The notes under the pieces are model-generated. The model was not told the DNA's origin. It saw only the letters and a program-made list of their open reading frames with translations, and did no database searches. Position numbers and translations under genes: made by a program. From Patulibacter minatonensis DSM 18081 (lineage in GTDB: Bacteria; Actinomycetota; Thermoleophilia; Solirubrobacterales; Solirubrobacteraceae), in the NCBI RefSeq assembly GCF_000519325.1, contig NZ_KI912613.1, positions 1,539,317-1,603,316 of the forward strand: a stretch of DNA of 64,000 nucleotides, written 5' to 3'. Shown here piece by piece: positions 4,393 through 30,431 of this stretch; within the stretch, counting starts at the first letter, position 1; every line of letters starts with the position of its first letter.

Positions 4393-5301
4393 TCAGTGCG
4401 GTCCCGTGACGCCGAGCGCGTCGGGCACCCGGACGCTCCCCGCGGCGGGCGCGTCGGCGTGCAGGTCGTTGCCGCGGGCCACCAGGCGCAGCCCCGCCCA
4501 GCCCGCGACGGCGAACGCGACCGCGTGGAGGGTCGCGAGCAGCGGGGTTGCGCCGAGCGGCTCGCCGAACGCGACGATCCCGGTGAGGATCGCGACGGCG
4601 TTGGTCGCGGCGGTCATCGTCACGACCACCGGCACCACGGGGCCGAGCTGCAGGCCGCGCTGGAAGCAGGCGAATCCGCAGCCGCAGATGGCGACGTAGA
4701 CGAGCAGCCACGGGCTGGCGACGACGCCGAGCACGCCGTGGTGCGCGACGACCGCCAGGGCCTTCGTCGCCGCGTCCCCCGCGCCGTAGAGGATCCCGCC
4801 CGCGGTCCCGAGGGCGACGGCGCGGCGCCGGTGGTCGGCGAGGACGACGAGGACCGCGGCGACGAGGGCGGCCGCGGTGAGCGCCACCACGAGCGGTCCG
4901 ACCGGGACGCCACGGGCCGCCGTCGACGTCGCGCCGATCCCGAGGGTCGCGAGCGAGACGACGAGCGCCGCCACCGCCCACGCCTCGCGGCGCCCCAGCC
5001 GCTGTCCGAAGACGCGGGCCGCGACGGGGACGGTGAGCACGAGCCCGCCGGCCGCGAACGCCTGGACGAGCGACAGCGGGGCGCCGTAGAGCGCGGCGGC
5101 GTGGCCGAGCGAGCCGACGACGCCGAGCACCGCACCCGCGAGCCACCAACGGGATCGCAGGAGTCCCGTGAGCGTCGCGACCGGGCGGCGCACGTCCATC
5201 TCCGGAGCGCCGCTCGAACCGGCGTGCTGCATGAGGTACGAGGCGTTCAGCGCGACCGACGCGACGACCGCGAGCAGCAGCCCGGTGAGGAGCGGGCTCA
5301 T
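4393..5301 (-). CDS. DMT-superfamily (EamA/NIPA-like) membrane transporter
   Basis: A 302-residue protein made almost wholly of about ten hydrophobic helices. The segment around WWLAGAVLG through GAPLSLVQAFAAG resembles drug/metabolite-transporter and NIPA-type proteins. The substrate cannot be read from the sequence. Its ATG overlaps the TGA of the preceding MprF-like gene (ATGA), so the two are very likely translated from one mRNA. A transporter coupled to an aminoacyl-lipid synthase could export a cationic compound or move the lipid; that link is inference from position only. Confidence 0.78.
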   Translation of the reverse strand: MSPLLTGLLLAVVASVALNASYLMQHAGSSGAPEMDVRRPVATLTGLLRSRWWLAGAVLGVVGSLGHAAALYGAPLSLVQAFAAGGLVLTVPVAARVFGQRLGRREAWAVAALVVSLATLGIGATSTAARGVPVGPLVVALTAAALVAAVLVVLADHRRRAVALGTAGGILYGAGDAATKALAVVAHHGVLGVVASPWLLVYVAICGCGFACFQRGLQLGPVVPVVVTMTAATNAVAILTGIVAFGEPLGATPLLATLHAVAFAVAGWAGLRLVARGNDLHADAPAAGSVRVPDALGVTGPH

Positions 5302-7061
5302 CCCGCGACCCGTGCCGGCGCGGCGGGCGCCGCGGTCCGTCCGCGGACCAGGGCCGGCCGCGGGAGGTGCCCCTCGATCCACGCGGCGGCCAGGGCGGTG
5401 CGGGGCAGACTCAGCGCGCTCTCGTAGAGGAGGTGGCGGGGGACCCAGCGCGGGGAGAACTTCGCGTTGAACCGGTAGAGGCTCTCGAGCTGGAAGACCC
5501 CGTCGGCGCGGAGCACCGCGCGCCCGAGGAGCCGCTCGACCGGGCCGGTCGGCGCGTGCACCCACCGGGCGAACACCGCGAAGTTCAGCGACAGCTCCTC
5601 GACGCCGCGGTCGCGCAGGAGCTCGATCGCCCGGACGACGAGGAACTCGGTGAGCCCGTTGGGCGTGTCGTGGTCGCGGCGCATGAGGCTGAGCGACATC
5701 GCCGCGCGGCCGTAGGCCGGCACGAAGTGCAGGAACCCGCGGGCCCGGCCCGCGTCGTCCCGGGCGACCACCACGAGCGAGTCCTGGACGTGCGGGCCCC
5801 GGAGCCCGTCCATCGCCATCGAGAACCCACGCTCCCGCGCGTCGCCACGCCACTGCGCGCTGACGTCCTCCAGTTCGCGGATCCGGACCTCGTCGCAGTC
5901 GCCCAGCTGCCGGACCTCGGCCCGGTACCCCGCGCGCTCGACGCGCCCGACGGCCTGCCGGACCTTCTTGATCGGCCGGCCCTCGAGGGTGAACGCGGCG
6001 GTCTGCACGATTGCCTCGTCGCCGAGGTACAGCGACCGCAGGCCGCCGGCGACCGCCAGCTCGGCGAACGCGTCGCTCGCGCCGATCGCGGCGATCCGCA
6101 GGTCGTGCTCGCCCGCGAAGCGCCGGACCTCGGCCACGAGCGCCGGGAGCGCGTCCTCGGGACCGACGGGGTCGCCGGAGATCACGAGGACGCCGCTGTC
6201 GACGCGGTAGGACACGAACGCGCGGCCGTCGGCGGAGACGAGCGTGCGGACGTCGGGGCGCAGCTTGAACGCGCTCAGGGTGTCGTGTCCGTGCGCGCGG
6301 ACCGTCGCGGCGACGAGCTCGCGGGACTCCGGCGTCGGCGCGTCGTCGGGGACCGGGAGGGGCCGGAAGAGCAGCCACCCCGCGACGGCGATGGCGACGG
6401 CGACGAGACCGCCGCTCGCGAGCGGCAGCCACGCGAGGGCGTCGGGCAGGTGCAGCGGTCCGCGCGTCCCCGTCAGGAGCGCGCCCGTCTCCGCCAGGAC
6501 CTGGTCGTTCGTCGCCCCCGGGAAGGACCACGGCACGGCCGCGCGGACCGTGCCGAACACGGCCATCCCGACGGCGGCGGCCACGCCGAGGATCCGGAGG
6601 AGCGCGACGCCGAGCGCGCCGTCCTCGTGCCGGACGACGAACGCGGCGCGGCCGGCCACGAGGCAGGCGGCGACGGCGAGGCTCACGGTCGCCTCGACGA
6701 GGTCGAGCCCGCCGCGCAGCTGCAGCAGGCCGACGGCGACGAGGACGGCGAGCGCGACCCACAGCGCCCGGCGGCGGCGCCGGGCGAGGAACGCGGCGAG
6801 CGTGAGGAGGAGCACGCCGGCGGGAAGCGACAGGGCGTGCACGGCGACCACGAGCTCCCCGGCCGCGAGGCGGTCGACGCTCGCGGCGTGCCCCGACGGC
6901 GGCGGGGCGAGCGCCGAGGTGACGTTGACGACCCCGACGACCGCGGTGGCGGCCGCGGCGAGGAGCGGGAGTCGGCGGTCCGCGCGAGCCCGCACGGACG
7001 GACGCCCGGGGACGACGTCCCGGCGCGGACGGGGGACCTTCATGGTCGGGCTCGGTGCCAT
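5298..7061 (-). CDS. MprF-like phosphatidylglycerol aminoacyltransferase (DUF2156)
   Basis: A 587-residue protein with about 6-7 N-terminal membrane helices (to about residue 235) and a C-terminal soluble domain of the LPG_synthase_C/DUF2156 type with a GNAT-like fold. Visible family features include the early stretch FVSYRVDSGVLVISGDPVG, then GRPIKKVRQAVGR, and a final block with LESLYRFNAKFSPRWVPR. Such enzymes move an amino acid from tRNA to phosphatidylglycerol, lowering surface negative charge and raising resistance to cationic peptides. There is no lysyl-tRNA-synthetase domain of the LysX type. The start is the ATG at 7061, with a possible -10 box (ACAGAT) 7 nt before it; an ATG at 7043 is the alternative. 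CCAAC repeats lie upstream. Confidence 0.85.
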   Translation of the reverse strand: MAPSPTMKVPRPRRDVVPGRPSVRARADRRLPLLAAAATAVVGVVNVTSALAPPPSGHAASVDRLAAGELVVAVHALSLPAGVLLLTLAAFLARRRRRALWVALAVLVAVGLLQLRGGLDLVEATVSLAVAACLVAGRAAFVVRHEDGALGVALLRILGVAAAVGMAVFGTVRAAVPWSFPGATNDQVLAETGALLTGTRGPLHLPDALAWLPLASGGLVAVAIAVAGWLLFRPLPVPDDAPTPESRELVAATVRAHGHDTLSAFKLRPDVRTLVSADGRAFVSYRVDSGVLVISGDPVGPEDALPALVAEVRRFAGEHDLRIAAIGASDAFAELAVAGGLRSLYLGDEAIVQTAAFTLEGRPIKKVRQAVGRVERAGYRAEVRQLGDCDEVRIRELEDVSAQWRGDARERGFSMAMDGLRGPHVQDSLVVVARDDAGRARGFLHFVPAYGRAAMSLSLMRRDHDTPNGLTEFLVVRAIELLRDRGVEELSLNFAVFARWVHAPTGPVERLLGRAVLRADGVFQLESLYRFNAKFSPRWVPRHLLYESALSLPRTALAAAWIEGHLPRPALVRGRTAAPAAPARVAG

Positions 7062-7104
7062 GTCCCCAATCTGTCGCGCGCCCGGCGAAGCCCGGTAGCG
7101 GTGG

Positions 7105-7121
7105 TGTTGGGGTGGTGTTGG
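7105..7121 (-). promoter_or_regulatory. 11-bp direct-repeat operator (CCAAC family)
   Basis: Read on the minus strand, CCAACA occurs at 7121-7116 and 7110-7105, 11 bp apart. A possible -10 box ACAGAT (7074-7069) precedes the ATG at 7061 by 7 nt. The same repeat stands before the genes at 19582, 21482 and 26247. A third half-site seen in those promoters is degenerate here. Confidence 0.5.
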
Positions 7122-15042: not shown

Positions 15043-15086
15043 GGCGGCGACCGTAGGCCCGCCGCGGCGACGTCCGGCCAGCGTCA

Positions 15087-15103
15087 GGTCAACGCCCGGT
15101 CAA
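15087..15103. promoter_or_regulatory. 11-bp direct-repeat operator (GGTCAA family)
   Basis: GGTCAA at 15087-15092 and 15098-15103 start 11 bp apart, with a poor third copy (GGCCAG) at 15076. The site lies between the divergent lipoprotein/ABC operon and the response-regulator/kinase pair. On the right a -10-like TACCGT (15153-15158) precedes the GTG at 15165 by 6 nt. It is probably the operator of the regulator encoded at 15165, controlling both directions. Confidence 0.5.
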
Positions 15104-15164
15104 ACCTGGCCGGATCGCGCTCCGGCTGCCCGGAGCACGGCCCGGCAGGCGGTACCGTCGGGGC

Positions 15165-17564: not shown

Positions 17565-18391
17565 TCAGGCGTCCCGCCGCACCAGCCGCACCGACGCCAC
17601 CACGATCACGATCAGCGTGTAGGCGCAGAAGACCGCGAAGCCCCCGAACGTCGACAGGTGGTGGGAGTCCTCGAAGGTGCTCGTCGTGATCGTGAAGCCC
17701 GCGTTCAGCGGCAGGTACGGGTTCACGGCGTCCGCGGTCGAGTGCGGCAGCAGGGCGGTGATCCCGGGCAGGACGAAGAGCAGTCCGACGAACGCGGCGA
17801 TGCCGCCGGCGGTGTTGCGGACGAGCGCGCCGAGCCCGAGGCCGAGCGCCCCGAGGACGGTCAGGAACAGCGCGGTGCCGACGACCGCGCGCAGGGCGTG
17901 CGGGTCGCCGATGCCGTGCTGGACGTGGTGGCCGGCGACGATCGCCTGGGTGGCGAAGAACGCGACGAACGTCGCGACGAGCATCAGCGCGAAGACGACG
18001 GAGCAGTAGACCGCGAGCTTCGCCCAGAGCACGGGCAGCCGCTTGGGGACGGCCATGAAGCTCGACCGGATCATGCCGGTGGCGTACTCGCCGGAGATCG
18101 CGAGGACGCCGAGCACCCCGATCGCGAGCTGGGCCAGGTGGTAGCCCCCGACGCCCACGTCGATGGAGTCGTAGACGGCCTTGTCCTGCGCGCTCGTGCT
18201 CGCCCACCGACTCATCTGGACGGCGGAGATGCCGACCGCCAGACCGATCATCGCAACGACGGCGACGGCCAGCGACCAGCGGGTCGAGCGCAGCGACCAG
18301 AGCTTCGTCCACTCCGACCGGACGACGTTGGCCTGCGTGACGCGTCCTCCGGTGCGGGCGACGACCGCCGGGGCGGTGGGGGCGGCGGTGC

Positions 18392-18395
<4 letters not shown>
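17565..18395 (-). CDS. ABC-2 type transporter permease
   Basis: A 276-residue membrane protein with about six helices, beginning with a cytoplasmic segment ending VVRSEWTKLWSLRS, typical of actinobacterial ABC-2 permeases next to drug-export ATPases. The stretch GEYATGMIRSSFMAVPKRLPVLWAK is split by no frameshift and matches the same group in layout. Its start overlaps the ATPase gene by ATGA. Together they form a two-gene exporter; the substrate is unknown, with drugs, peptides or lipids possible. Confidence 0.88.
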
Positions 18396-19345
<950 letters not shown>

Positions 19346-19411
19346 GCGTGTCCTTCGGGGGCGGCGCGGGCGACGCCGGGGGTGGCCGGACACCCGATGG
19401 TGGCCCTCGCA

Positions 19412-19428: not shown

Positions 19429-19519
19429 AGCGGCGGGGCGCCACGGCCCCGACGGACGGCTCGGCGCATCGCGCCCCCGGGACGGACGGCCCGACCGGCG
19501 GACCCGGACCCGGCGTGTC

Positions 19520-19557
19520 CCAACAGGACGCCAACCTGCGCTCCACGGCCACCAACC
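19520..19557 (+). promoter_or_regulatory. CCAAC-family repeats, spacing 0/11/32
   Basis: CCAACA (19520), CCAACC (19531) and CCAACC (19552) occur before the lipoprotein gene at 19582. The 0/11/32 spacing is the same as upstream of 26247. A -10-like GTAGAT (19567-19572) follows 9 bp after the last copy. Confidence 0.6.
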
Positions 19558-19581: not shown

Positions 19582-20301
19582 ATGACCACGAGACCCGTCC
19601 CGCCCGCCGCCACGACCCTCGCCCTGCCGGTCGCCGCAGCCCTCGCGCTCGGCGTCACCGGGTGCGGGTCCGGGGCCACCGCGTCGCCCGCCGGGTCGTC
19701 GCCGCCCGCCACGAACGCGGCCGCCAGGTCGACGGCCGCGGCCCCCGCGAGCCGGACCCAGAGCGCCGACGCGGTCGCGCGGATCGTCGCCGGCCACTAC
19801 GACGCGGAGACGAACGGGCACGCGGTGCACAAGCAGCTCCGGAACGTCATCCACGACCCCGGGCTTGTGGCGGCGCTGGCCGCGGACGACCTCCCCGCCG
19901 CCCGCGCGGCCGCTGCGCGCCTCACCGTCGGAAAGGCGCACATCAGCCGGCTCCAGGTCCGCCGTGGCGGAAGGAAGGTCGTCGACGTCGGCGTGCCGTT
20001 CTGCGTCGCCGGCCCGTCGGCGACGATCCGCGCCGCCGACGGGCGGTCGCTCGGCGTGGCGACGGTCTCGATCCAGGACGAGATCGGTGTCGTGCGGCTG
20101 CTGCACCGCCACAACCCCGCGCACGTCTTCATCAAGGGCGCGTCGGGCACCGCACGGACCTCCCTGCAGCCCGCCCGCCACGTGCGGCTCCCGACGCGCG
20201 GCACGGTCGCGATCCAGGGTCGGCGCTACGCCGTGACGTCGTTCCGGCGTTGGGCGCTCGACCACGAGCGCGTGCGGATCTTCATCCTCGCGCAGCGCTG
20301 A
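19582..20301 (+). CDS. Putative lipoprotein with sensor-like extracytoplasmic domain
   Basis: A 239-residue protein with a signal peptide ending in a lipobox (VTGC, Cys at about 28) and an Ala/Ser/Thr-rich linker (about 29-62). The globular domain (about 63-239) includes FCVAGPSATIRAADGRSLG followed by VATVSIQDEIGVVRLLHR, a layout that recalls single Cache sensor domains; this likeness is unverified. It is divergent from the ABC-2 exporter and has the CCAAC repeats also found before the GT39-type genes. It may sense or bind something at the cell surface. Confidence 0.65.
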   Translation: MTTRPVPPAATTLALPVAAALALGVTGCGSGATASPAGSSPPATNAAARSTAAAPASRTQSADAVARIVAGHYDAETNGHAVHKQLRNVIHDPGLVAALAADDLPAARAAAARLTVGKAHISRLQVRRGGRKVVDVGVPFCVAGPSATIRAADGRSLGVATVSIQDEIGVVRLLHRHNPAHVFIKGASGTARTSLQPARHVRLPTRGTVAIQGRRYAVTSFRRWALDHERVRIFILAQR

Positions 20302-20456
20302 CGGGCGGCCGCCCGGACCGCGCCCGCTCCCGGCCCGCCGGTGCAGGCCCCGACCGCGGTCGACCCGGCCGTCCAGCGCCACCGTGCCGGAGGCGTCGTC
20401 GTGGCGCGCCCGGACCACCCGGATCCGTCCCGCACGGGACGGCCTACCCTCCAGCG

Positions 20457-21395
20457 ATGTCGCGCGCCACGTCACGGGTCCGGTCGCCACCGGTCGTCGC
20501 CGCGGCGTTGCTCGTCGTCGTCGCCGCGGCGGTGGCCCTCGTCGCCGCGGTCGTCCCCCGCGCGTCCGCCGGCGCGGACCCGACGTCGTGCGCGGCCGCG
20601 ACACCGGCGGGCGGCGCGACCTATGGTCTCGAGGTCCCCGCCGGCCCGCTCCCGATGCGCGTGCTCGTGCACGTCCCGCGCCGACCGGCCGGGCGACGGC
20701 TCCCACTCGTCCTGGCGTTCCACGGCGCCGGGGCCGACGGCGCGCAGTTCCGCCGGTACTCGGGGCTCGCCGCGCTCGCGGACCGCGCCGGCTTCGCGGT
20801 CGCGTTCCCGACCGCCCCGGCCCCCACGCGCTCGTGGCAGCTGTTCGACCAGCCCGGATCGGGTCGCGACGACGTCGCGGCCGTCGGCCGGGCGCTCGAC
20901 GCGGTCCTGGGTCGCAGCTGCGTCGACCCGGGCCGCGTGTTCGCGACCGGCGTCTCCAACGGCGGCGGCTTCACCGCCCGGCTCGGCTGCGCCCTGCCGG
21001 AGCGCATCGCGGGCATCGCACCCGTCGCCGGGGGCTACCGCGCCGTCGCCCGGTGCCCCGCGGGCCGGCCGGTCTCGGTCCTCGAGATCCACGGCACCGA
21101 GGACCACGTCGTGCCGTACCGCGGTGGCGAGGAGACCGACTTCCGTGGCGCCGTGCTCCCGTACCTGCGCGTCTGGGCCGCCCGCGACGGGTGCGGTCCC
21201 CACGGGATCGTCACGCGCCGGCCCGGCGTCCTCGTCCGCTGGCGGTGGGCCGGCTGCGCACCCGGGATCCGGGTCCGTCACGTCGCGATCGTCGGCGGCC
21301 GGCACAGCTGGTCGGGAGGGACGCCCCGGGACGCCGGACCCAACCCGCTCTCCGCCGCCGAGGAGGTCTGGCGCTTCTTCCGGAGCCCCGGGTGA
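20457..21395 (+). CDS. Secreted alpha/beta-hydrolase esterase, PHB-depolymerase/LpqC-like
   Basis: A 312-residue exported esterase. A long hydrophobic N-terminus (about 12-38) acts as signal peptide or anchor. The core shows the oxyanion-hole region (LAFHGAG), nucleophile Ser-167 in GVSNGG, acid Asp-216 (GTEDHVVPY) and His-283 (GGRHSW), the order expected for the poly(3-hydroxybutyrate) depolymerase/feruloyl-esterase group that includes LpqC. Several Cys could form disulfides. The substrate is unknown. A -10-like TACCCT (20445-20450) ends 6 nt before the ATG at 20457, so the gene probably has its own leaderless promoter. Confidence 0.82.
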   Translation: MSRATSRVRSPPVVAAALLVVVAAAVALVAAVVPRASAGADPTSCAAATPAGGATYGLEVPAGPLPMRVLVHVPRRPAGRRLPLVLAFHGAGADGAQFRRYSGLAALADRAGFAVAFPTAPAPTRSWQLFDQPGSGRDDVAAVGRALDAVLGRSCVDPGRVFATGVSNGGGFTARLGCALPERIAGIAPVAGGYRAVARCPAGRPVSVLEIHGTEDHVVPYRGGEETDFRGAVLPYLRVWAARDGCGPHGIVTRRPGVLVRWRWAGCAPGIRVRHVAIVGGRHSWSGGTPRDAGPNPLSAAEEVWRFFRSPG

Positions 21396-21420
21396 CGCGA
21401 CGCACGCACCGCGGAGCGTC

Positions 21421-21448
21421 CTAACCGGACGCCAACAGTCGGCCAACC
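21421..21448 (+). promoter_or_regulatory. CCAAC-family triple direct repeat
   Basis: CTAACC (21421), CCAACA (21432) and CCAACC (21443) are each exactly 11 bp apart, in front of the GT2 gene. A weak -10-like GGGCAT (21458-21463) follows 9 bp after the last repeat. Confidence 0.6.
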
Positions 21449-21481
21449 GCGGCGAACGGGCATCGGCGGAAGGTGGCGGTC

Positions 21482-22309
21482 ATGGCCACCACCGCACACC
21501 ACCCCGCCGGCGCCGACCCGCAGCCGATCGTCCCGCTCGACCCGGCGGTGGGCGTCCGCGCCCGGCGCCTGGTGCGGCCGGCCGACGCGCACGCCCCGCT
21601 CCTGCGCAGCGTGACGATCGTCCTCCCGTGCTTCGACGAGGCCGAGAACGTCGCGGCGGCGATCGCGGCGGCGAAGCGCGCCGGCGCGATGTCGGCGGTC
21701 GACTACGAGGTCGTCGTCGTGGACGACGGCAGCACGGACGCGACGTGCGCGATCGCGGGGGCGATCGTCTCCGACGACCCGCACGTCCGGCTCATCGTCC
21801 ACACCCGCAACCGCGGGTACGGCGACGCGGTTCGGTCGGGCATCGAGGCCGCCCGGATGGACTGGGTCCTCCTGACGGACGCGGACCTCCAGTTCGACCT
21901 CGACGAGCTCCGCGACCTCGTGCCGCTGACCGCCGACGGCGACGTCGTGTGGGGGTGGCGGATCGACCGCCGGGACTCCGCGCGGCGCCGGGCGGCCGCG
22001 GCGGTCTGGAACGGCGTCGTCCGGACCCTCTTCGCCCTCCCGGTCCGGGACGTCGACTGCGCCTTCAAGCTCATCCGCCGCGATCTCCTGCGCGACGTCC
22101 ACCTGGTCTCCAGCGGCGCGATGATCAGCACCGAGCTGCTCGTCCGCTGCCGGGCCGCGGGCGCCCGCGTCGTCGAGGCCGGCGTCCACCACCATCCGCG
22201 GGTCGCGGGCGAGGAGTCGGGTGGCGACCCGAGGGTCATCCTCCGCGCGCTGCGCGAGCTCGCGTCGACGTACCCCGCGCTGCGCGCGCTCCGGGTCCGG
22301 TCGGTCTGA
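21482..22309 (+). CDS. Family 2 glycosyltransferase (polyprenyl-phosphate sugar synthase-like)
   Basis: A 275-residue glycosyltransferase. The GT-A fold is marked by VVVVDDGSTDAT, NRGYGDAVRSGIEAA and the metal-binding TDADLQ. No membrane helix is seen, as in the dolichol-phosphate-mannose synthase DPM1 type. Such enzymes load a sugar from a nucleotide donor onto polyprenyl phosphate for a GT39/ArnT-type enzyme that acts outside the membrane. Exactly that kind of gene follows 4 bp downstream. The ATG at 21482 is preferred because AAGGTGG precedes it; a GTG at 21473 is in frame. Confidence 0.88.
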   Translation: MATTAHHPAGADPQPIVPLDPAVGVRARRLVRPADAHAPLLRSVTIVLPCFDEAENVAAAIAAAKRAGAMSAVDYEVVVVDDGSTDATCAIAGAIVSDDPHVRLIVHTRNRGYGDAVRSGIEAARMDWVLLTDADLQFDLDELRDLVPLTADGDVVWGWRIDRRDSARRRAAAAVWNGVVRTLFALPVRDVDCAFKLIRRDLLRDVHLVSSGAMISTELLVRCRAAGARVVEAGVHHHPRVAGEESGGDPRVILRALRELASTYPALRALRVRSV

Positions 22310-22313
22310 GGCG

Positions 22314-24104
22314 ATGGGCACGACGCTCGCACCGGAGCGGCCGGTCGCCCCCCGGGGCGGCGCCGCCCCACCGACCGCGGAGCCCGGGGCGTCCGAGGCG
22401 ACGCCGACGGTCGACCGGCGAGCCGCCCTCGCGGGGCTCGCCGTCGTCTGCGTCCTCGCCGCCGTGCTGCGGTTCTGGGCGTTCGGGCGCGTCGACGGCA
22501 CGCCGTTCTACGACGCGGCCGTCCGCTCGATGGGGAGCTCCTGGCACGACTTCTTCTACGGCGCGATCGAGCCGGGGGGCCGGGTCGCGATCGACAAGAC
22601 CCCGGTCGACCTCTGGCTCCAGGTGGCGAGCACCAAGGTCCTCGGCTTCTCGAGCGTCAGCCTCCGCCTGCCCCAGGCGGTCTGCGGGGTGCTCGCCGTC
22701 CCGCTGCTCTTCGACGTCGTCCGCCGCGGCTTCGGCGACCGGGTCGGCCTGGCCGCCGCGCTCGCGCTCGCGGTCCTGCCGGTCGCGGTCCTCACGAGCC
22801 GGTCGGACACGATGGACACGGTGATGGGCACGCTCCTGCTCCTCGCCGTCTGGGTCGTCGTGCGCGCCCGGCCGGAGCGTCGCGCCCGCGCCGTCGTGCT
22901 CGCCGGCGCGATCGCCGGCCTCGCGTTCGAGGTCAAGCTCTTCCAGGCGGTCGTCGGCCTCCCGGCGATCGCGCTCCTCGGCCTGCTCGCGGTCCCGGGC
23001 ACGCTCCGTCGCCGACTCGGGGTCACCGCGCTCGCCGGCCTCGCGTTCCTCGTCGTCGCCGCGGCCTGGCCCGTCGTCGCCACCGTGCTGCCGGGCGGCC
23101 ACCCGGTGCCGCTCGGCTCGAAGGACGGCTCGATCGCGAGCGTCCTCCTGGGCTACAACGGCCTGGACCGCCTCGGCGCACCGACCAGCGGCAACGGGTC
23201 GGCGAACCTCACGAGCCTCCTCCGGGACGGGAGCGGATCGCCGCTCGCCCCGCTGGTCGGGATCGAGCTGGCGGCCGCCCTCGTCGTCGGGACGCTCGCC
23301 GCCCTGGTGACCGGGATCCGCGGGGGGCGGGCGCTGCCGGCCGTCGTCCGCGGCCTCGCGCGGGGCGACGTCGCCGGCGCGCTGCCCGAGGATCCCGCGG
23401 CGCTCCGCCGCGTCCTGGTCGGCACCGCGCTGGCCGTCTGGTTCCTCACCGGTCTCCTCGTCTTCTCGGCGATGGGCCAGCTGCGCCCGCGGTACCTCGA
23501 GGCGTTCACGCCCGCGCTCGCCGGAGTGCTCGGCGTCGGGCTCGTCGTGCTCGCGGACCGGGCCCTCGGGGCGCGGCGTCGCGTCGCGGCCGTCGTCGTC
23601 GCCGTCGTGCTCGCCGCGGTCCTCGCCGCACCGGTCGCCGAGAGCGCACGCCTGGTCCGCACCGGTGCCGGGGACTCGGGGACGGCCGGACGACTGCCCG
23701 CGCCGGTCGTCGCACGGCTGAGCGCGTACCTCCGCGCCCACCAGGGCGCCGGCGTCCGCTTCCAGGTCGCGAGCTCCGGCATCACGACGGTCGCCCCGCT
23801 GATCGTCCGCGACGGCCGGCCCGTGCTCGTCCTGGGCGGGATCGGGGCCCGGCCGCTGGTCACGCTGCCGGCGCTGCGCTCCGCGATCGCCGCCGGGCAG
23901 GTCCGGTTCGTGCTGGCGGGCGCCGGCCCCGCGCGTCTCGGGACGATCCGCTGGGTCCAGCGGCACGGGACCGACGTCAGCGCCGCGGCCGGACTCCCGC
24001 GGCGGGTCCGCCTCTACCGGGTCGACGGGCCCGGCGTGGCCGGGCGATCGGGGACCACCGCGGCCCCGGGAGCGGCACGCGCCGTCGTCCCGGGCCGCCG
24101 GTAG
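22314..24104 (+). CDS. GT39/ArnT-like polyprenyl-phosphate-sugar transferase, copy 1
   Basis: A 596-residue multi-spanning transferase of the PMT_2/ArnT type. Early conserved parts are FYDAAVRSM, DKTPVDLWLQ and SLRLPQA, followed by TSRSDTMDTVMG, then AFEVKLFQA and the later RYLEAFTP. About 11-12 helices lie before a C-terminal extracytoplasmic domain (about 465-596). It would move a sugar from polyprenyl phosphate to a surface acceptor. It forms an operon with the GT2 gene just upstream. Acceptor and sugar are unknown. The stop codon TAG is part of the -10-like box of the next gene. Confidence 0.87.
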   Translation: MGTTLAPERPVAPRGGAAPPTAEPGASEATPTVDRRAALAGLAVVCVLAAVLRFWAFGRVDGTPFYDAAVRSMGSSWHDFFYGAIEPGGRVAIDKTPVDLWLQVASTKVLGFSSVSLRLPQAVCGVLAVPLLFDVVRRGFGDRVGLAAALALAVLPVAVLTSRSDTMDTVMGTLLLLAVWVVVRARPERRARAVVLAGAIAGLAFEVKLFQAVVGLPAIALLGLLAVPGTLRRRLGVTALAGLAFLVVAAAWPVVATVLPGGHPVPLGSKDGSIASVLLGYNGLDRLGAPTSGNGSANLTSLLRDGSGSPLAPLVGIELAAALVVGTLAALVTGIRGGRALPAVVRGLARGDVAGALPEDPAALRRVLVGTALAVWFLTGLLVFSAMGQLRPRYLEAFTPALAGVLGVGLVVLADRALGARRRVAAVVVAVVLAAVLAAPVAESARLVRTGAGDSGTAGRLPAPVVARLSAYLRAHQGAGVRFQVASSGITTVAPLIVRDGRPVLVLGGIGARPLVTLPALRSAIAAGQVRFVLAGAGPARLGTIRWVQRHGTDVSAAAGLPRRVRLYRVDGPGVAGRSGTTAAPGAARAVVPGRR

Positions 24105-24107
24105 CGT
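24102..24107 (+). promoter_or_regulatory. -10 box of an internal leaderless promoter
   Basis: TAGCGT at 24102-24107 (overlapping the stop codon of the GT39 gene) is followed after 7 nt by the ATG of the response regulator at 24115. The same arrangement (TAGCGT-N7-ATG) occurs at 48231-48244. Confidence 0.45.
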
Positions 24108-24114
24108 GCGGCCG

Positions 24115-24813
24115 ATGGCGACCGAGACGCTCGACATCCTCGTCGTCGACGACGAGTCCGAGCTGCGGGAGCAGATCCGCCGCCTGTTCGAGCGGGACGG
24201 CCATCGCGTGATGGCCGTCAGCGACGGGCGCTCCGCGATCGACCACGCCAGCACCACGGCGTTCGACATCGTCCTGCTCGACGTCGCCCTGGGCGCGGGC
24301 CCGGACGGCTACGAGGTCTGCCGGACGCTGCGCGAGCGGCACAACATCGTGCCCGTGATCATGCTGACCGCCCTGGACTCCGAGGCCGACGCGGTGCTCG
24401 GCCTCGAGTCCGGCGCCGACGACTACGTCACGAAGCCGTTCGGTCCCGCCGAGCTGCGCAGCCGGATCAAGGCCGTGCTCCGCCGCGCCGGCAGCCGCGC
24501 GATCGGCGAGGACGTCCTGCGCGTCGGCCCCCTGGTGCTCGACCGCACCAGGCGCTCCGTGACCGTTCGCGACGCGCCGGTCGAGCTGACGTTCTCGGAG
24601 TTCGAGCTCCTCGAGGTCCTGATGACGAACCCCGGCGTGCTCCACAACCGCCAGGAGCTGCTGCGGGCGATCTGGGGCGACAACGCGTACCGCGACCCGC
24701 GCGGGATCGACGTCCACGTCCGCCACCTGCGCCAGAAGCTCGAGGTCGTGCCCGAGCGCCCCGAGCTCGTGCTGACCGTGCGCGGGGTCGGCTACCGGCT
24801 GCAGGGTCCGTGA
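24115..24813 (+). CDS. OmpR/PhoB-type response regulator (regulator C)
   Basis: A 232-residue regulator. The receiver has D12/D13, phospho-acceptor D56 (LLDVALG) and K107 (TKPF); an unusual GAGPDG stretch follows the phosphorylated Asp. The winged-helix domain ends VRGVGYRLQ. It is flanked by glycosyltransferase genes that carry CCAAC repeats, so it is the likely CCAAC-binding regulator (inference). It overlaps the kinase gene by 4 bp (GTGA). An in-frame GTG at 24106 would add three residues. Confidence 0.92.
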   Translation: MATETLDILVVDDESELREQIRRLFERDGHRVMAVSDGRSAIDHASTTAFDIVLLDVALGAGPDGYEVCRTLRERHNIVPVIMLTALDSEADAVLGLESGADDYVTKPFGPAELRSRIKAVLRRAGSRAIGEDVLRVGPLVLDRTRRSVTVRDAPVELTFSEFELLEVLMTNPGVLHNRQELLRAIWGDNAYRDPRGIDVHVRHLRQKLEVVPERPELVLTVRGVGYRLQGP

Positions 24814-26195
24814 GGCGCCTCCGCGGCCTCCGCGGCCGCTTCGCCCTGGCGCTGATGGGCGTCAGCGCGCTGACGCTGGCGATCACGGCCGCGCTGCTCC
24901 TGATCCCGCTCGACCGGGCGCTCCGGGACGACGCCGTCCGGACCCTCGCCGAGTCCGCGCGCGCCTCGCGGTCGACGGTGCGCGAGCTCCCGCCGTCCGC
25001 CTACCGCGCCGACTCGCGACGCCTGCGCCGCGTGCTGATCACGATCCGCCGGCAGACCGCCGCGGACGCCGCGGTGTACGACGCCCGGGCCGCGCTCGTG
25101 GTGTCGACCGACGTCGACGACCTCGCCCGCAGCCCGGTCGCCGGCCGTGCGATCGCGGCGGGCTCGACCGTGCGGTTCGAGCGCGCGCCGGGGGACGACG
25201 CCGACGAGGCGGCGGTCGCCACGCCGTTCACGGTGGAGGACCGGCGCTACGTGCTCGTCATGCACCGGTCGCTGAACGACCTGCCGGCCGTCCAGCACGT
25301 GGTCCGCCAGGCCCTCCTGGTCGCGGCCGGGATCGCGCTCCTGATCGCGCTCGTCGTCGGGCTCGTCCTCGCATCGCGGCTCGTCGCCCGGGTCACGGCG
25401 CTCCGGGACACCGCGCTGCGCGTCTCCGACGCCGGCATGGTCGTCGAGGTCCGCCCCGACGACGCACGCGACGAGATCGGCGACCTCACCCGCGCGTTCG
25501 CGGCGATGCAGCAGCAGCTCCGCGACCAGGAGGACGCGCGCCGCACGTTCGTGGCGACCGCGTCCCACGAGCTGCGCACCCCGCTCGCGTCCCTGCTCCT
25601 GATGCTCCACGCGACCTCGGAGGACCTCGCGGACGATCCGCCGGACCTCGACGAGGCCCGGCGGCAGGTGGGTCGCGCGCTCGGGCAGACCGAGCGCCTG
25701 ACGCGGCTCTCGGCGACGCTCCTGGACCTCAGCCGCCTCGACGCCCGGCTGCCGCTGCGCGCGGAGCCGGTCGAGCTCGGCGAGCTCGCGCGGTCGATCG
25801 TCGCCGAGTTCCCGGTCGAGCTCGGCGTCCGCCTCCACGCCGAGGACGACCTGTGGTGCACCGCGGATCCCGGCAGCGTCGCGCAGGTGGTGCGGGTGCT
25901 CGTGGACAACGCCGCGCTGCACGGCGCGGCGCCGATCGTCGTCACCGCCGGCGCCGGGCCCGGGCGCGCGGTGCTCACCGTCGAGGACGGGGGGCCCGGC
26001 GTCCGCGCCGACGAGGCCGTCAGGATCTTCGGCCGGTTCGAGCGCGGGAACGAGGCGGGGGACTCCGGGTCCGGTCTCGGCCTCGCGATCGGACGGGAGC
26101 TCGCGGTGCGGATGGGCGGCGACCTCCGTCTGGAGCCCGGCGGGAACGGCGCGCGGTTCGTCCTGGAGCTCCCCTCCACCGACGTCCCAACCTGA
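24810..26195 (+). CDS. Sensor histidine kinase, partner of regulator C
   Basis: A 461-residue kinase: first helix about 10-33, extracytoplasmic sensor region about 34-165, second helix about 168-190, HAMP, then HisKA with the phosphorylated His at about 253 (TASHELRTPLA). The HATPase part shows an altered N-box (VLVDNAALHG), G1 (DGGPGV) and G2 (GSGLGLAIG). The GTG start overlaps the regulator's TGA. Its last codons already contain the first CCAAC repeat of the next promoter. Confidence 0.92.
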   Translation: MRRLRGLRGRFALALMGVSALTLAITAALLLIPLDRALRDDAVRTLAESARASRSTVRELPPSAYRADSRRLRRVLITIRRQTAADAAVYDARAALVVSTDVDDLARSPVAGRAIAAGSTVRFERAPGDDADEAAVATPFTVEDRRYVLVMHRSLNDLPAVQHVVRQALLVAAGIALLIALVVGLVLASRLVARVTALRDTALRVSDAGMVVEVRPDDARDEIGDLTRAFAAMQQQLRDQEDARRTFVATASHELRTPLASLLLMLHATSEDLADDPPDLDEARRQVGRALGQTERLTRLSATLLDLSRLDARLPLRAEPVELGELARSIVAEFPVELGVRLHAEDDLWCTADPGSVAQVVRVLVDNAALHGAAPIVVTAGAGPGRAVLTVEDGGPGVRADEAVRIFGRFERGNEAGDSGSGLGLAIGRELAVRMGGDLRLEPGGNGARFVLELPSTDVPT

Positions 26196-26224
26196 CGCCA
26201 ACACCAGCACAAGGTCCGCCAACC
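26187..26224 (+). promoter_or_regulatory. CCAAC-family repeats, spacing 0/11/32
   Basis: CCAACC (26187, inside the kinase's last codons), CCAACA (26198) and CCAACC (26219) precede the second GT39-type gene. A -10-like GAGACT (26235-26240) lies 10 bp after the last copy and 6 nt before the GTG at 26247, predicting a leaderless message. Confidence 0.6.
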
Positions 26225-26246
26225 GGGGGCGTCCGAGACTGGGTCG

Positions 26247-27914
26247 GTGACCGACACCGTGTCCTCCCGCCCGACGTCCCGGTCGGTCTCGATCGCGCTG
26301 CCCTGGGCGACCCTGGCGGTCGTGGCGGTGTGCGTCTTCGGCGTCGTGCTCCGGGCGTGGGACTTCTCGCGCACACCGCCCAACCCGTTCTACGACGCCG
26401 CCGTGCGCTCGATGGGCCTCTCGTGGCACAACTTCTTCTACGGCGCGTTCGAGCCCGGCGGGTCGGTCTCGGTCGACAAGGCCCCGATCGACCTCTGGCT
26501 GCAGGTGGCCAGCACGAAGCTCCTGGGGTTCTCGTCGGTCACGCTCCGCCTGCCGCAGGTGATCGCGGGCAGTCTCGCGATCCCGCTCCTCTACGACCTC
26601 GTGCGCCGGGGGTTCGGGCGACGTGCCGGGCTCGTCGCCGCGTCCGCGCTGGCCGTGCTCCCGATCGCGGTCCTGACCAGCCGCTCCGACACGATGGACA
26701 CGCTGATGGGGACGGTGCTCCTCGCGGCGCTGTGGACGATCGCGGCGGCGCCCCCGGAGCGGCGCCGGCGGGCGGTGGTCGGTGCGGGGGCACTGGCCGG
26801 GCTCGCGTTCGAGATCAAGCTCTTCCAGGCGATGGTCGCGATCCCGGCGATCGCCGCGATGGCGTGGTGGGCGCTCGACGACCTCCCGAGCCGCCGGATC
26901 CGGACGCTGCAGCACGCCGCGATCGCCTTCGTGGTCGTCGCCGCCGCATGGCCGGTCGCGGCCTCCCTCGCTCCCGGGCACCACCCGTTCCCGCTGGGGG
27001 CGACCGACGGGACGATCGCGAACGTGATCCTGATCTACAACGGCCTGGACCGCCTGGGCTACCCCGCGGCCGGCGCGCTGAACGTCGTCCCCCCGGGGCC
27101 CTTCCGGCTGCTGACGACCACGCACCCCGACTACCTGGGGATGATCGGCACCGTCCTCGTACCCGCGCTGCTCCTCGGCGGGCTCGCGATCCGCTCCGCC
27201 GCCGTCGCGCGGAAGCGCACGCGCACGCCCCGCGCGCTCGACCCGGCGGCCCGGACCCGCGTGGCCGTCGGCGTCGGCATCGGCGTCTGGCTGCTCTGCG
27301 GCTTCCTCCTGTTCAGCGTCCAGGGCCGGGTGCGGATGCGGTACCTGGAGGCGTTCACGCCGTCGGTGGCCGCGACCTTCGGCATCGGGCTGAGCGCCTG
27401 GATCGGCGCGCTGGCGCGACGCCACGACTGGCGGCCCCACGTGAGCACGTACGTCGTCGCGCTGCTGACCGCCGGGCTGCTGGCGGCTCCGCTCCTCACG
27501 TCGATGCGGCTCGTGCGCACCGGCGCGGAGGACTCGCAGACGCTCGGCGCGATCCCCGCGGCGCAGGTCGAGTCCGTGAGCCGCTACCTCCACGCCCACC
27601 AGCCCGGCGCGCGGTACGAGTTCGCCAGCTCGGGGAGCATCGTTGCCGGCCCGCTGATCGCCCGCGACGGCGAGCCGGTCCTGATGCTCACGGGCTGGTG
27701 GGGACGACAGCAGACGACCCCCGCGCAGCTCGAGGCGAAGGTCCGCACCGGCGAGGTCCGCCACCTGCTCCTCGACGAGACGGGCTGCCGGTCCCCGCAC
27801 GACGCCTCGTGCTCCCCGGTGATGCGCTGGGCGCTCGCCCACGCGACCGACGTCAGCGCGCAGGCGGGTCTGGCCGCGAACCCGTTCCGCCGTCTCGTGC
27901 GCCTGCACGTCTGA
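26247..27914 (+). CDS. GT39/ArnT-like polyprenyl-phosphate-sugar transferase, copy 2
   Basis: A 555-residue paralogue of the enzyme at 22314. Shared blocks include FYDAAVRSM, WLQVASTK, LRLPQ, TSRSDTMDT and RYLEAFTP. The central loop and the C-terminal extracytoplasmic domain (about 420-555) differ, so acceptor specificity may differ. A DETGCRSPHDASC segment near the end has two Cys that could form a disulfide. It probably draws on the same polyprenyl-phosphate sugar pool made by the GT2 enzyme. It starts with GTG and has its own CCAAC-regulated promoter. Confidence 0.86.
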   Translation: MTDTVSSRPTSRSVSIALPWATLAVVAVCVFGVVLRAWDFSRTPPNPFYDAAVRSMGLSWHNFFYGAFEPGGSVSVDKAPIDLWLQVASTKLLGFSSVTLRLPQVIAGSLAIPLLYDLVRRGFGRRAGLVAASALAVLPIAVLTSRSDTMDTLMGTVLLAALWTIAAAPPERRRRAVVGAGALAGLAFEIKLFQAMVAIPAIAAMAWWALDDLPSRRIRTLQHAAIAFVVVAAAWPVAASLAPGHHPFPLGATDGTIANVILIYNGLDRLGYPAAGALNVVPPGPFRLLTTTHPDYLGMIGTVLVPALLLGGLAIRSAAVARKRTRTPRALDPAARTRVAVGVGIGVWLLCGFLLFSVQGRVRMRYLEAFTPSVAATFGIGLSAWIGALARRHDWRPHVSTYVVALLTAGLLAAPLLTSMRLVRTGAEDSQTLGAIPAAQVESVSRYLHAHQPGARYEFASSGSIVAGPLIARDGEPVLMLTGWWGRQQTTPAQLEAKVRTGEVRHLLLDETGCRSPHDASCSPVMRWALAHATDVSAQAGLAANPFRRLVRLHV

Positions 27915-28607: not shown

Positions 28608-29456
28608 TCAGGTGGGGGAGAGGGCGCCCGCGCCGACGAGGACGAGGACGATCGTGCCGAGGGCGATGCGGTAGGTGATGAACACGCCGAGGCCGTGGCG
28701 GGCGATGAAGCCGAGGAGCCAGGCGACCGCGGCGTAGCCGACGACGAAGGACACGGCGGTGGCGAGGATCGTGGGGCCCCAGCCGATGCCGCCGGAGATG
28801 TTCGACGCCTCGCTCGCGACCTGCAGCAGCGTCGCGCCGACGAGGGCCGGCATCGCGAGGAAGAACGAGAGGCGGGTCACGGCGACGCGGTCGATGCCGC
28901 GCAGCAGGCCGGCGGACATCGTGGCGCCGGACCGCGAGACGCCGGGGATGAGGGCGAGGCACTGCGCGACGCCGATCGCGAGGGTGTCGCGCCACGTGAC
29001 GTCGTCCTCGCCCCGCCGTTGCGTGCCGACGCGGTCCGCGAACCACATCACCCCGGAGAACAGGATGAGCGCCGAGCCGACGAACCACAGGGACCGCAGC
29101 GTCGTCTCGATCTGATCCTTGAACGCGACGCCGATGATGCCGATCGGGATCGACCCGATCAGGATCGCGAGCGCGAACCGGAAGTCCCGGGTCCGGCGCT
29201 CCGACGGCGTCCGGAGGCCCCGGAGGAACGACCCGACGAGCCGGAGCACGTCGTCGCGGAGGTAGAGCACCGTCGCCAGCACGGCACCGACCTGGATGAT
29301 CGCCGTGAACGCCGTCACGTCCGGGTCGTCGAGCTTGAACCCCATGATCTTCTCGGCGATCGTGAGGTGCCCGGTCGACGAGATCGGGAGGAACTCGGTG
29401 AGACCCTCGAGGCCGCCGAGGATCACGGCCTCCCACAGGTGCATCGAGGCGCTCAC
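28608..29456 (-). CDS. uppP: Undecaprenyl-diphosphatase UppP (BacA)
   Basis: A 282-residue polytopic membrane enzyme with both UppP signature blocks: EFLPISSTGHL near the N-terminus and the central IPGVSRSGAT. It removes a phosphate from undecaprenyl diphosphate to regenerate the lipid carrier for cell-wall and surface polymers; extra copies give bacitracin resistance. The GTG at 29456 is chosen because it overlaps the stop of a short leader frame (GTGA); an ATG at 29444 is the alternative. The CTCATC operator upstream places it with the envelope regulon. A PAP2 gene follows directly. Confidence 0.93.
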   Translation of the reverse strand: MSASMHLWEAVILGGLEGLTEFLPISSTGHLTIAEKIMGFKLDDPDVTAFTAIIQVGAVLATVLYLRDDVLRLVGSFLRGLRTPSERRTRDFRFALAILIGSIPIGIIGVAFKDQIETTLRSLWFVGSALILFSGVMWFADRVGTQRRGEDDVTWRDTLAIGVAQCLALIPGVSRSGATMSAGLLRGIDRVAVTRLSFFLAMPALVGATLLQVASEASNISGGIGWGPTILATAVSFVVGYAAVAWLLGFIARHGLGVFITYRIALGTIVLVLVGAGALSPT

Positions 29457-29524
29457 GAGCTCGAGCCCCCGGCAGGACGGTGGGCAGGACGGACGGGCGC
29501 CGGTGTTCGGCGGGCGGTGCGCAT
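29453..29524 (-). CDS. Predicted leaderless leader peptide coupled to uppP
   Basis: A 23-codon frame starts with ATG at 29524, exactly where transcription should begin (6 nt after the -10-like CACAGT at 29536-29531). It ends with TGA overlapping the uppP GTG by 4 bp. The product would be Arg/Pro-rich at the start and end in Gly-Ser-Ser-Ser. Its likely job is to deliver ribosomes to uppP, which has no obvious Shine-Dalgarno sequence. Evidence is positional only. Confidence 0.4.
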   Translation of the reverse strand: MRTARRTPAPVRPAHRPAGGSSS

Positions 29525-29545
29525 GGGACCACTGTGGGGACACCA

Positions 29546-29562
29546 GATGAGCCCAACATGAG
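29546..29562 (-). promoter_or_regulatory. 11-bp direct-repeat operator (CTCATC family)
   Basis: On the minus strand CTCATG (29562-29557) and CTCATC (29551-29546) are 11 bp apart, followed after 9 bp by the -10-like CACAGT (29536-29531). It controls uppP and the PAP2 gene. A second operator of the same family, facing the other way, lies 84 bp to the right. Confidence 0.62.
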
Positions 29563-29645
29563 AGGACCGCGGGCGGGTCGCCGCGCGGGCGGGTGCCCGC
29601 GCGACAGTGCGGTGCTCCGTGCGCGCACCACGTCCGCCCGCCGCT

Positions 29646-29662
29646 CTCATCGACCGTTCATC
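29646..29662 (+). promoter_or_regulatory. 11-bp direct-repeat operator (CTCATC family)
   Basis: CTCATC (29646-29651) and TTCATC (29657-29662) are 11 bp apart. The -10-like CATCCT (29672-29677) follows after 9 bp and the GTG of the DedA gene after 6 nt more, giving a predicted leaderless mRNA. Confidence 0.62.
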
Positions 29663-29683
29663 GGGCCGGGGCATCCTCGGGAC

Positions 29684-30274
29684 GTGCTGATCCCGATCCC
29701 GTCGTCCCTCGGCTATCCGGCGCTCGCCGGGCTGATCCTCGGCGAGTCCGCAGGCCTGCCGCTGCCGGGCGAGACCGCCCTCCTGACCGCGGGTGGCCTC
29801 GTCGCCGGCGGTCACCTGTCGCTGCCGCTCGTGATCCTCGTGGCCGCGGTCGCGGCGACCCTCGGCGACACGCTCGGCTACATGCTCGGCCGGCGGGGCG
29901 GACGGGCGTTCCTCCTGCGCGACGGACGGTTCTCGGGCCACCGGCGCGCGGCCGTCGCGAAGGCCGACGCGTTCTTCGCGCGCCACGGCGTCGTCGCCGT
30001 CTTCCTCGGCCGGTGGGTCCCCGGGGTCCGGATCGTCGCGGCGCTGACGGCCGGCGCGGCCCGGATGCCGTGGCCGCGGTTCGCGATCGCCAACGCCACC
30101 GGTGCCCTGGCGTGGGCCGCCTCGGTCGCAGCGCTGGCGATGCTCGCCGGACCGCAGTGGTCGTTCGCGCTCGTGGTCGGCGGGCTCGCGCTCGCGCCCG
30201 TCACGGCGGCGATCGCCTGGTGGCGCGTGCGTCGTGCGCGCCGCACGGCCGAGATCGCGTCGGTCGCCGGCTGA
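29684..30274 (+). CDS. DedA-family membrane protein
   Basis: A 196-residue membrane protein. DedA hallmarks are the early LGESAGLPLPGETAL block, GDTLGYMLGRRGG and FLGRWVPGVR followed by NATGALAW. DedA proteins help keep membrane potential, resist cationic peptides and, in some members, flip undecaprenyl phosphate or phospholipids. Standing divergent from uppP under the same operator type fits a role in lipid-carrier recycling. The GTG at 29684 is chosen from the promoter geometry; the frame is open much further upstream but has no conserved features there. Confidence 0.87.
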   Translation: MLIPIPSSLGYPALAGLILGESAGLPLPGETALLTAGGLVAGGHLSLPLVILVAAVAATLGDTLGYMLGRRGGRAFLLRDGRFSGHRRAAVAKADAFFARHGVVAVFLGRWVPGVRIVAALTAGAARMPWPRFAIANATGALAWAASVAALAMLAGPQWSFALVVGGLALAPVTAAIAWWRVRRARRTAEIASVAG

Positions 30275-30393: not shown

Positions 30394-30431
30394 CAATTCT
30401 GGGTCCCTCCGGGCCCATGACGAGGAGACTC

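What the first reader, a model, noticed from the sequence alone, without database searches (positions are those of the whole stretch)
19582..27914. A self-regulated surface-glycosylation island
The region has a lipoprotein, a secreted esterase, GT2, GT39, a two-component system and a second GT39, with CCAAC operators at three points. The two GT39 enzymes are paralogues with different extracytoplasmic ends, so one polyprenyl-phosphate sugar pool may serve two acceptors. ArnC/ArnT-like modification under PhoP control is known in Gram-negatives; a comparable circuit in an actinobacterial-type genome would be new, but the sugar and acceptor are unknown.
Basis: partly seen in the sequence, partly recalled or inferred. 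Interest (0 to 1): 0.5.

Follow-up and report, generated by a model that had tools for sequence, protein, structure and literature searches.

The report
Autoregulated envelope sugar-transfer gene island
A bacterium from a little-studied actinobacterial order carries a compact set of genes that probably attach a sugar to its outer surface and that appear to be switched by their own sensor-regulator pair through a short repeated DNA signal; related bacteria carry parts of the same set, in two cases next to a gene that changes membrane charge.

Summary
Lipoprotein, PHB-type esterase, GT2, GT39, OmpR-type regulator, kinase and a second GT39 lie at 19582-27914, and the operator CCYAACNNGACGCCAAC occurs three times in the 5.52 Mb genome, all here. 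A looser site at 7106 precedes an MprF/LysX-type gene. Relatives in Solirubrobacterales repeat parts of the gene set and the operator: upstream of GT2, 17 hits at up to one mismatch in 2,940 strand-bases against 53 in 662,090 elsewhere (reversed pattern 3 and 37). Half-sites recur at 11 and 21-22 bases. One relative whose regulator differs in the helix region has a different 11-base-spaced operator. The GT39 model is nearest ArnT, tied with AglB; the lipoprotein model is a Cache-type sensor domain. Best reading: an autoregulated two-component circuit for polyprenyl-phosphate sugar transfer to the envelope, in some relatives beside lipid-charge and DedA genes. Sugar, acceptor and signal are unknown. 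The kind is known: Bacillus YclJ is reported to activate ykcBC and yngABC (PMC7961091). New variant of a known kind.

The parts
19519..19556 (+). Operator 1, half-sites CCAAC at 19520, 19531, 19552, upstream of the lipoprotein
19582..20301 (+). Lipoprotein with a free-standing Cache/PAS-type sensor domain (residues about 55-239)
   Evidence: AlphaFold2 model, mean pLDDT 74.6, 8 sequences; VIA-align: DctB 3e4o Z 11.3, CitA 1p0z Z 10.7, LuxQ, KinD; Foldseek best E 7.4e-5 with low TM-scores; no Pfam or NCBIfam match
20457..21395 (+). PHB-depolymerase-type esterase, probably exported
   Evidence: Esterase_PHB 45.7 bits, cut-off 23; NF050058 147.5 bits, cut-off 150
21420..21447 (+). Operator 2, half-sites at 21421 (CTAAC), 21432, 21443, upstream of GT2-GT39-RR-HK
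21473..22309 (+). GT2, ArnC/Dpm1-type glycosyltransferase (start GTG 21473 or ATG 21482)
   Evidence: Pfam 99.5 bits; nearest NCBIfam and PDB entries ArnC
22314..24104 (+). GT39-1, ArnT-like GT-C glycosyltransferase, lacks the C-terminal cysteine pair
24106..24813 (+). OmpR/PhoB-type response regulator, presumed to bind the operators
24810..26195 (+). Sensor histidine kinase
26186..26223 (+). Operator 3, half-sites at 26187, 26198, 26219, upstream of GT39-2
26247..27914 (+). GT39-2, paralogue of GT39-1 with the C-terminal cysteine pair
7106..7121 (-). Candidate operator 4, CCAACACCACCCCAAC, the genome's only other exact CYAACN6CYAAC site
   Evidence: weaker than sites 1-3, no third AAC half-site
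5298..7064 (-). MprF/LysX-type gene; homologue (51%) lies between GT39 and RR in Paraconexibacter antarcticus
   Evidence: LPG_synthase_C 231.1 bits, cut-off 27.5
17565..19348 (-). ABC exporter pair (permease 17565-18395, ATPase 18392-19348); homologues (66%, 74%) lie inside the Solirubrobacter soli cassette
   Evidence: among NCBIfam models the lantibiotic-protection ATPase ranks first, below cut-off
29480..30274 (+). DedA/VTT membrane protein, nearest NCBIfam family UptA (below cut-off); homologue (66%) inside the S. soli cassette; no operator seen here
28608..29543 (-). UppP/BacA-type phosphatase, adjacent; no homologue in the 44 named loci, so not shown to belong
   Evidence: BacA 277.7 bits

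Best explanation
The island is an autoregulated two-component circuit for adding a sugar to the outside of the cell. Shown by sequence: the gene content, the operator array, its confinement to this island in this genome, its recurrence near the same genes in other genera, and the family and fold assignments. Inferred: the regulator, once phosphorylated by the kinase, binds arrays of CYAAC half-sites spaced 11 and 21-22 bases and activates the lipoprotein unit, the GT2-GT39-RR-HK unit (and so itself) and GT39-2. GT2 loads a sugar onto polyprenyl phosphate inside; a GtrA-type protein encoded elsewhere (1240147 or 347271) flips it; the two ArnT-like GT39 enzymes pass the sugar to extracytoplasmic acceptors. 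The Cache lipoprotein probably serves as an accessory sensor of the kinase or a feedback reader of the modified surface. LPG synthase is a likely further target, so the output would be a change in surface chemistry or charge.
For: Three exact 17-base operators in 5.52 Mb, all in this island, one before each presumed transcription unit. The pattern CYAACN6CYAAC was taken from the window and applied to relatives. Upstream of 14 GT2 genes in 20 loci: 17 hits at up to 1 mismatch in 2,940 strand-bases against 53 in 662,090 elsewhere; exact 7 against 8; reversed pattern 3 and 37. 11 of the 14 GT2 genes and 13 of the 20 loci have at least one such hit (my count). By gene: 11 of 53 GT2, GT39, lipoprotein, esterase and RR genes against 5 of 181 others, Fisher 6e-5 (GT2, GT39 and lipoprotein alone 11 of 34, 8e-7); reversed 2 and 3. 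Genome-wide in nine genomes: 14 of 46 exact hits lie in the window or in stretches fetched earlier for their GT39, against 0 of 41 reversed; without the own genome 9 of 41 against 0 of 38 (my count). Third half-site: of 34 AAC words downstream of 35 hand-picked sites 11 are at +11, 7 at +21, 7 at +22; without the window's four sites 21 of 30. Thirteen regulators share RDPR(A/G/S)(I/V)DVH in the region recalled to be the recognition helix; that of L024 differs, and its cassette has CTCAYCN5CTCAYC instead (3 of 6 hits of that genome, reversed 0). Sugar-transfer families.
Against: No expression or binding data. A first look for the exact pattern in 20 loci found one hit (L021); one mismatch was allowed after that. 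The nine genomes were chosen after searches had shown sites in several of them, so the genome-wide count is not independent; total exact hits (46) are close to the reversed control (41). Seven of 20 loci with a regulator at 47% or more (L023, L026, L078, L079, L087, L088, L096) show no hit before GT2, GT39, RR or lipoprotein, and L093's lies at a contig edge. L026 has the shared helix region and no such hit. Esterase, RR and HK genes show none of their own; GT87 genes have 5 of 8 but the reversed pattern also 3 of 8. The gene set is seldom complete: of 44 named loci, many on short contigs, 7 have the lipoprotein, 10 the esterase, 2 the LPG synthase. GtrA carries no exact operator in this genome and none was seen before DedA. 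ArnT (Z 26.1) and AglB (25.8) are tied, Pmt4 (24.8) close. The second operator type rests on one genome.
Confidence: 0.7

Rival explanations
1. The GT39 enzymes are protein O-mannosyltransferases of the actinobacterial Pmt kind, and the circuit tunes glycosylation of secreted proteins such as the lipoprotein.
For: Same GT-C superfamily; Pmt4 9i5k Z 24.8, near ArnT 26.1; a lipoprotein is encoded in the island.
Against: ArnT aligns over residues 34-571, including the C-terminal part, Pmt4 over 31-451 only; YkcB_C is above cut-off in both enzymes and PMT (PF02366) below; GT2 is nearer ArnC than Dpm synthase (E 2.5e-18 against 3.5e-12).
Confidence: 0.25
2. The operators belong to another OmpR-type regulator, for example one that may lie beside the kinase-like gene ending at 17116, and not to the island's own.
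For: A kinase-like open frame ends 2.4 kb from operator 1 (read by eye, no family search); OmpR-family sites look alike (recalled).
Against: A regulator at 47% or more lies in the same stretch as GT39 in 20 of 60 loci, 18 genomes; operator and helix region differ together in L024.
Confidence: 0.12
3. The CCAAC repeats are core-promoter or chance sequence and the genes are a housekeeping cluster.
For: CCAAC alone is not enriched in the window; the looser pattern is near background over whole genomes.
Against: The spaced pattern has 0.02 expected and 3 seen, the 17-mer is exclusive to the island, and the repeat recurs before GT2 in relatives with helical spacing.
Confidence: 0.05

Closest known systems
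Bacillus subtilis YclJK regulon: ykcBC (GT39 and GT2) and yngABC (GtcA-like, UDP-glucose enzyme, DedA)
   Same: Two-component control of a GT2 plus YkcB-type GT39, with GtcA/GtrA-like and DedA genes in the regulon (PMC7961091, passages). PMC10128005 (passage) also lists YkcB and YkcC in the YrkP regulon.
   Different: Here the regulator lies in the operon it seems to control, with a Cache lipoprotein, an esterase, two GT39s and an LPG synthase link; no UDP-glucose enzyme behind an exact site. Operators were not compared.
ArnC/ArnT L-Ara4N transfer under PhoPQ/PmrAB in Gram-negatives (recalled)
   Same: GT2 nearest ArnC, GT39 model nearest ArnT; two-component control
   Different: ArnC model far below cut-off (76 against 529 bits); the other arn genes were not sought; no lipid A acceptor expected in this lineage (recalled)
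Clostridioides difficile HexRK/hexSDF
   Same: Two-component system beside an envelope glycolipid operon with an MprF-like gene (PMC10128005, abstract and passages)
   Different: As described there: a glycolipid synthase, a deacetylase and an MprF-like flippase, no GT39
MprF/LysX aminoacyl-phosphatidylglycerol synthases
   Same: LPG_synthase_C at 231 bits; LysX first among NCBIfam models
   Different: 588 residues aligned to the first 579 of the 1102-position LysX model, so no lysyl-tRNA ligase part; LysX and MprF models both below cut-off

Membership tests
GT39 / YkcB-type | PMT_2 and YkcB_C domains above curated cut-off | tested here: met
   97.1 and 91 against 26.1; 42.6 and 43.1 against 27
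ArnT | GT-C fold with ArnT-like C-terminal domain | tested here: met
   5F15 Z 26.1, 440 residues, rmsd 4.5, model residues 34-571; AglB tied at 25.8, so the fold is not specific
ArnT | L-Ara4N donor and lipid A acceptor | not testable with these tools
   needs biochemistry
ArnC equivalog | NF007986 score above cut-off | tested here: not met
   76 bits, cut-off 529
OmpR/PhoB response regulator | Receiver and winged-helix domains above cut-off, conserved acceptor residues | tested here: met
   99.4 and 86.7 bits; D16, D59, T88, K110 invariant in 14 sequences
OmpR/PhoB response regulator | Binds direct repeats spaced about 11 bases | tested here: inconclusive
   sites have that form, binding not measured
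YclJK-YkcBC type circuit | Two-component system controlling GT2 plus YkcB-type GT39 | tested here: inconclusive
   operator 2 and gene order fit; control itself not measured
YclJK-YkcBC type circuit | GtrA-type flippase gene with the same operator | tested here: not met
   GtrA genes at 347271 and 1240147 have no exact site; a relative, L079, has an exact site 63 bases before a GtrA gene
Cache sensor domain | Cache/PAS-type extracytoplasmic fold | tested here: met
   Z 11.3 to DctB, rmsd 4.7 over 172 residues; sensor domains fill the list
Cache sensor domain | Match to a sequence family | tested here: not met
   no Pfam model at E 1, no NCBIfam model at 1e-5
MprF/LysX | LPG_synthase_C domain above cut-off | tested here: met
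   231.1 against 27.5
MprF (bifunctional, NF033480) | Score above curated cut-off | tested here: not met
   242.5 bits, cut-off 600

The most novel reading that the evidence does not exclude
In Solirubrobacterales this regulator governs a compact envelope-charge programme that joins ArnC/ArnT-like sugar transfer with LysX/MprF-like lipid aminoacylation, GtrA and DedA carrier functions, and a membrane-anchored Cache lipoprotein that acts as a detachable sensor for the kinase: a counterpart of the PhoPQ/PmrAB circuit in an actinobacterial lineage, with an operator readable from sequence.
Probability: 0.3. Interest if true: 0.7.

Novelty: new variant of a known kind. Interest (0 to 1): 0.52.

Why it matters
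It gives a testable, sequence-readable operator for an envelope-modification regulon in an order for which the paper searches here listed nothing on this subject, and it may link sugar transfer, lipid charge and carrier recycling under one regulator. It also suggests a sensor domain carried on a separate lipoprotein.

Tried and rejected
Chance CCAAC: rejected for the spaced form, though the bare pentamer is at background. The 17-mer at 1-2 mismatches: not usable, 24 against 19 reversed. UppP and PAP2 as conserved members: no homologue in the 44 named loci. DedA under the operator here: no repeat seen upstream, although S. soli has a one-mismatch site before its DedA gene. GT39 phylum-wide: 2 of 296 sampled genomes at E 1e-40, the own genome included. 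The first named-genome scan found nothing; the second, with an alignment, gave 44 loci. Further exact sites looked at that did not precede a clear envelope gene: L153, L154, L155, L157, L158. Papers: Solirubrobacter with glycosyltransferase and two-component (4 papers); GtrA, DedA, MprF, response regulator, actinobacteria, any four (0); Solirubrobacterales with cell envelope and glycosylation (0); ArnT in Gram-positives (4); polyprenyl phosphate mannose synthase (0); LysX (2); Cache lipoprotein (3); YclJ (9). In these I saw listings only, and no title there describes this circuit; the library lacks most subscription journals. Gene calls in relatives are crude (GC3-based), related genomes are not independent, and two of the 21 loci (L151, L152) were fetched because of a site, so the Fisher values are approximate. 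Wrong frames of mine: esterase, GT39-1; put right. The 35 sites were picked by hand for lying before cassette or envelope genes; other hits (such as L074 3254, L079 8506, L083 2914, L098 14939) were left out. Of the genes behind sites in relatives only seven were put to Pfam; the other GT87 and GT-C labels are by eye.
Full report
WHAT IS THERE. The window lies in a 5.52 Mb single-contig genome. Named records that share contig lengths with its family members, Paraconexibacter antarcticus, Solirubrobacter soli and many bins titled Solirubrobacterales, place it in that order (inference). GT2, GT39-1, RR and HK follow each other with gaps of a few bases or an overlap. The two GT39s are 53% identical and both carry PMT_2 and YkcB_C. 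GT39-2 keeps a C-terminal cysteine pair present in 16 of 20 aligned GT39s; GT39-1 lacks it (my count).

THE OPERATOR. CCYAACNNGACGCCAAC stands at 19519, 21420 and 26186, once before each presumed transcription unit. It has three exact matches in the genome, all here; with two mismatches allowed the pattern is near background, 24 against 19 reversed. The looser CYAACN6CYAAC has five exact hits in the genome (two of them overlap at operator 2), all in the window; the one outside the island is at 7106, minus strand, before an LPG synthase gene. A third half-site follows at 11 or 21 bases, 28-30 bases before the starts I chose (GTG for GT2). The form suits an OmpR/PhoB-type activator (recalled); leaderless promoters at operators 1 and 3 are my inference.

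RELATIVES. GT39-1 has matches at E 1e-50 in 43 of 232 genomes of the order, the own included, and in none of the seven other genomes of its genus. Of 60 loci inspected, 58 fetched around GT39 matches, 20 (18 genomes, ten genera by the handles) hold a regulator at 47% or more, and 14 hold the esterase. Of 44 named loci, many on short contigs, 7 have the lipoprotein, 10 the esterase, 2 the LPG synthase, 1 the DedA protein and the ABC pair at high identity. In P. antarcticus (L107) the order is GT39, LPG synthase, RR, HK, lipoprotein, all on one strand; in S. soli (L111), on both strands, HK, RR, GT2, DedA, GT39, ABC, GT39, lipoprotein, GT2 and a short LPG-synthase match at the contig end.

TEST OF THE OPERATOR IN RELATIVES. 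A first look for the exact pattern in 20 loci found one hit (L021). With one mismatch allowed, 20 loci gave 17 hits in 2,940 strand-bases upstream of 14 GT2 genes and 53 in 662,090 elsewhere, some of these before other cassette genes; exact 7 and 8; reversed pattern 3 and 37. Eleven of the 14 GT2 genes and 13 of the 20 loci have a hit; seven loci have none. By gene, 11 of 53 GT2, GT39, lipoprotein, esterase and RR genes against 5 of 181 others; reversed 2 and 3. GT87 genes have 5 of 8 but also 3 of 8 reversed, so they are not settled; methyltransferase 3 of 4 and LPG synthase 1 of 2, reversed 0. In nine genomes the exact pattern has 46 hits and the reversed one 41; 14 and 0 lie in the window or in stretches fetched earlier for GT39 (own window 5, G188 4, G089 2, G102, G107, G093 1 each, G088 and G198 0, G015 no hit). 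Without the own genome this is 9 of 41 against 0 of 38. The genomes were chosen after sites had been seen in several of them, so this is support and no independent test. Genes behind sites in relatives that Pfam confirms: GT87 (two above cut-off, one below), methyltransferase (two), LPG synthase, GtrA, DedA; the LPG synthase site of P. antarcticus has one mismatch. Of 34 AAC words downstream of 35 hand-picked sites, 25 lie at +11, +21 or +22 (21 of 30 without the window's sites); the +11 class is partly selected, the others are not.

HELIX AND OPERATOR. Thirteen regulators share RDPR(A/G/S)(I/V)DVH, in the region recalled to be the recognition helix; one of them, L026, has no site at one mismatch. 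The L024 regulator (40% identical) differs there, and its cassette carries CTCAYCN5CTCAYC before the lipoprotein and GT2. That pattern has six exact hits in its genome, reversed none, three of them in the cassette; the third, not used to define it, lies 247 bases before the kinase's first start. One genome only, but it ties operator to regulator.

PROTEINS. The GT39-1 model (mean pLDDT 87.9) is nearest ArnT with undecaprenyl phosphate, Z 26.1, tied with AglB 25.8, with Pmt4 24.8 close behind; fold does not fix the substrate. GT2 is nearest ArnC. The lipoprotein model (mean pLDDT 74.6) has a Cache/PAS-type fold, nearest DctB, CitA, LuxQ and KinD sensor domains: a sensor domain without a kinase. 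The LPG synthase has the MprF/LysX catalytic domain.

READING AND NOVELTY. Together these support an autoregulated two-component circuit for polyprenyl-phosphate sugar transfer to the envelope. The nearest described case is B. subtilis YclJ, reported to activate ykcBC and yngABC (PMC7961091, passages); C. difficile HexRK is a looser parallel (PMC10128005, abstract and passages). So the kind is known; the self-contained layout, the Cache lipoprotein, the operator array and the LPG synthase link are the new points. Sugar, acceptor, signal and any role in defence remain open.

Noticed in passing
Genome G000:C1:about 331-348 kb (L034, L035): A second GT39/two-component cassette, with a regulator that differs in the helix region and is like those of same-genus genomes; CCCAG at 11-base spacing in 6 of 16 upstream regions (my count of regions, no control).
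   Followed up: partly
window 14864-17116: A kinase-like open frame, perhaps with a regulator, beside the ABC exporter; read by eye.
   Followed up: no
window 30417-33410: Large, probably secreted protein with repeats that look propeller-like and a lysine-rich C-terminal end; read by eye.
   Followed up: no
window 5298-7121: LPG synthase gene with the genome's only exact CYAACN6CYAAC site outside the island before it.
   Followed up: yes
L107, L128, L144: In these relatives the Cache lipoprotein homologue is longer (307-412 residues) and may hold two sensor domains.
   Followed up: no
L156 4140-5128: An exact CCAACN6CCAAC site before a gene that looks like a polysaccharide deacetylase in genome G107 (by eye, no family search).
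   Followed up: no
Genus of the window genome (G001-G007): None of seven same-genus genomes has GT39-1 at E 1e-50: the island is patchy, lost or acquired.
   Followed up: no
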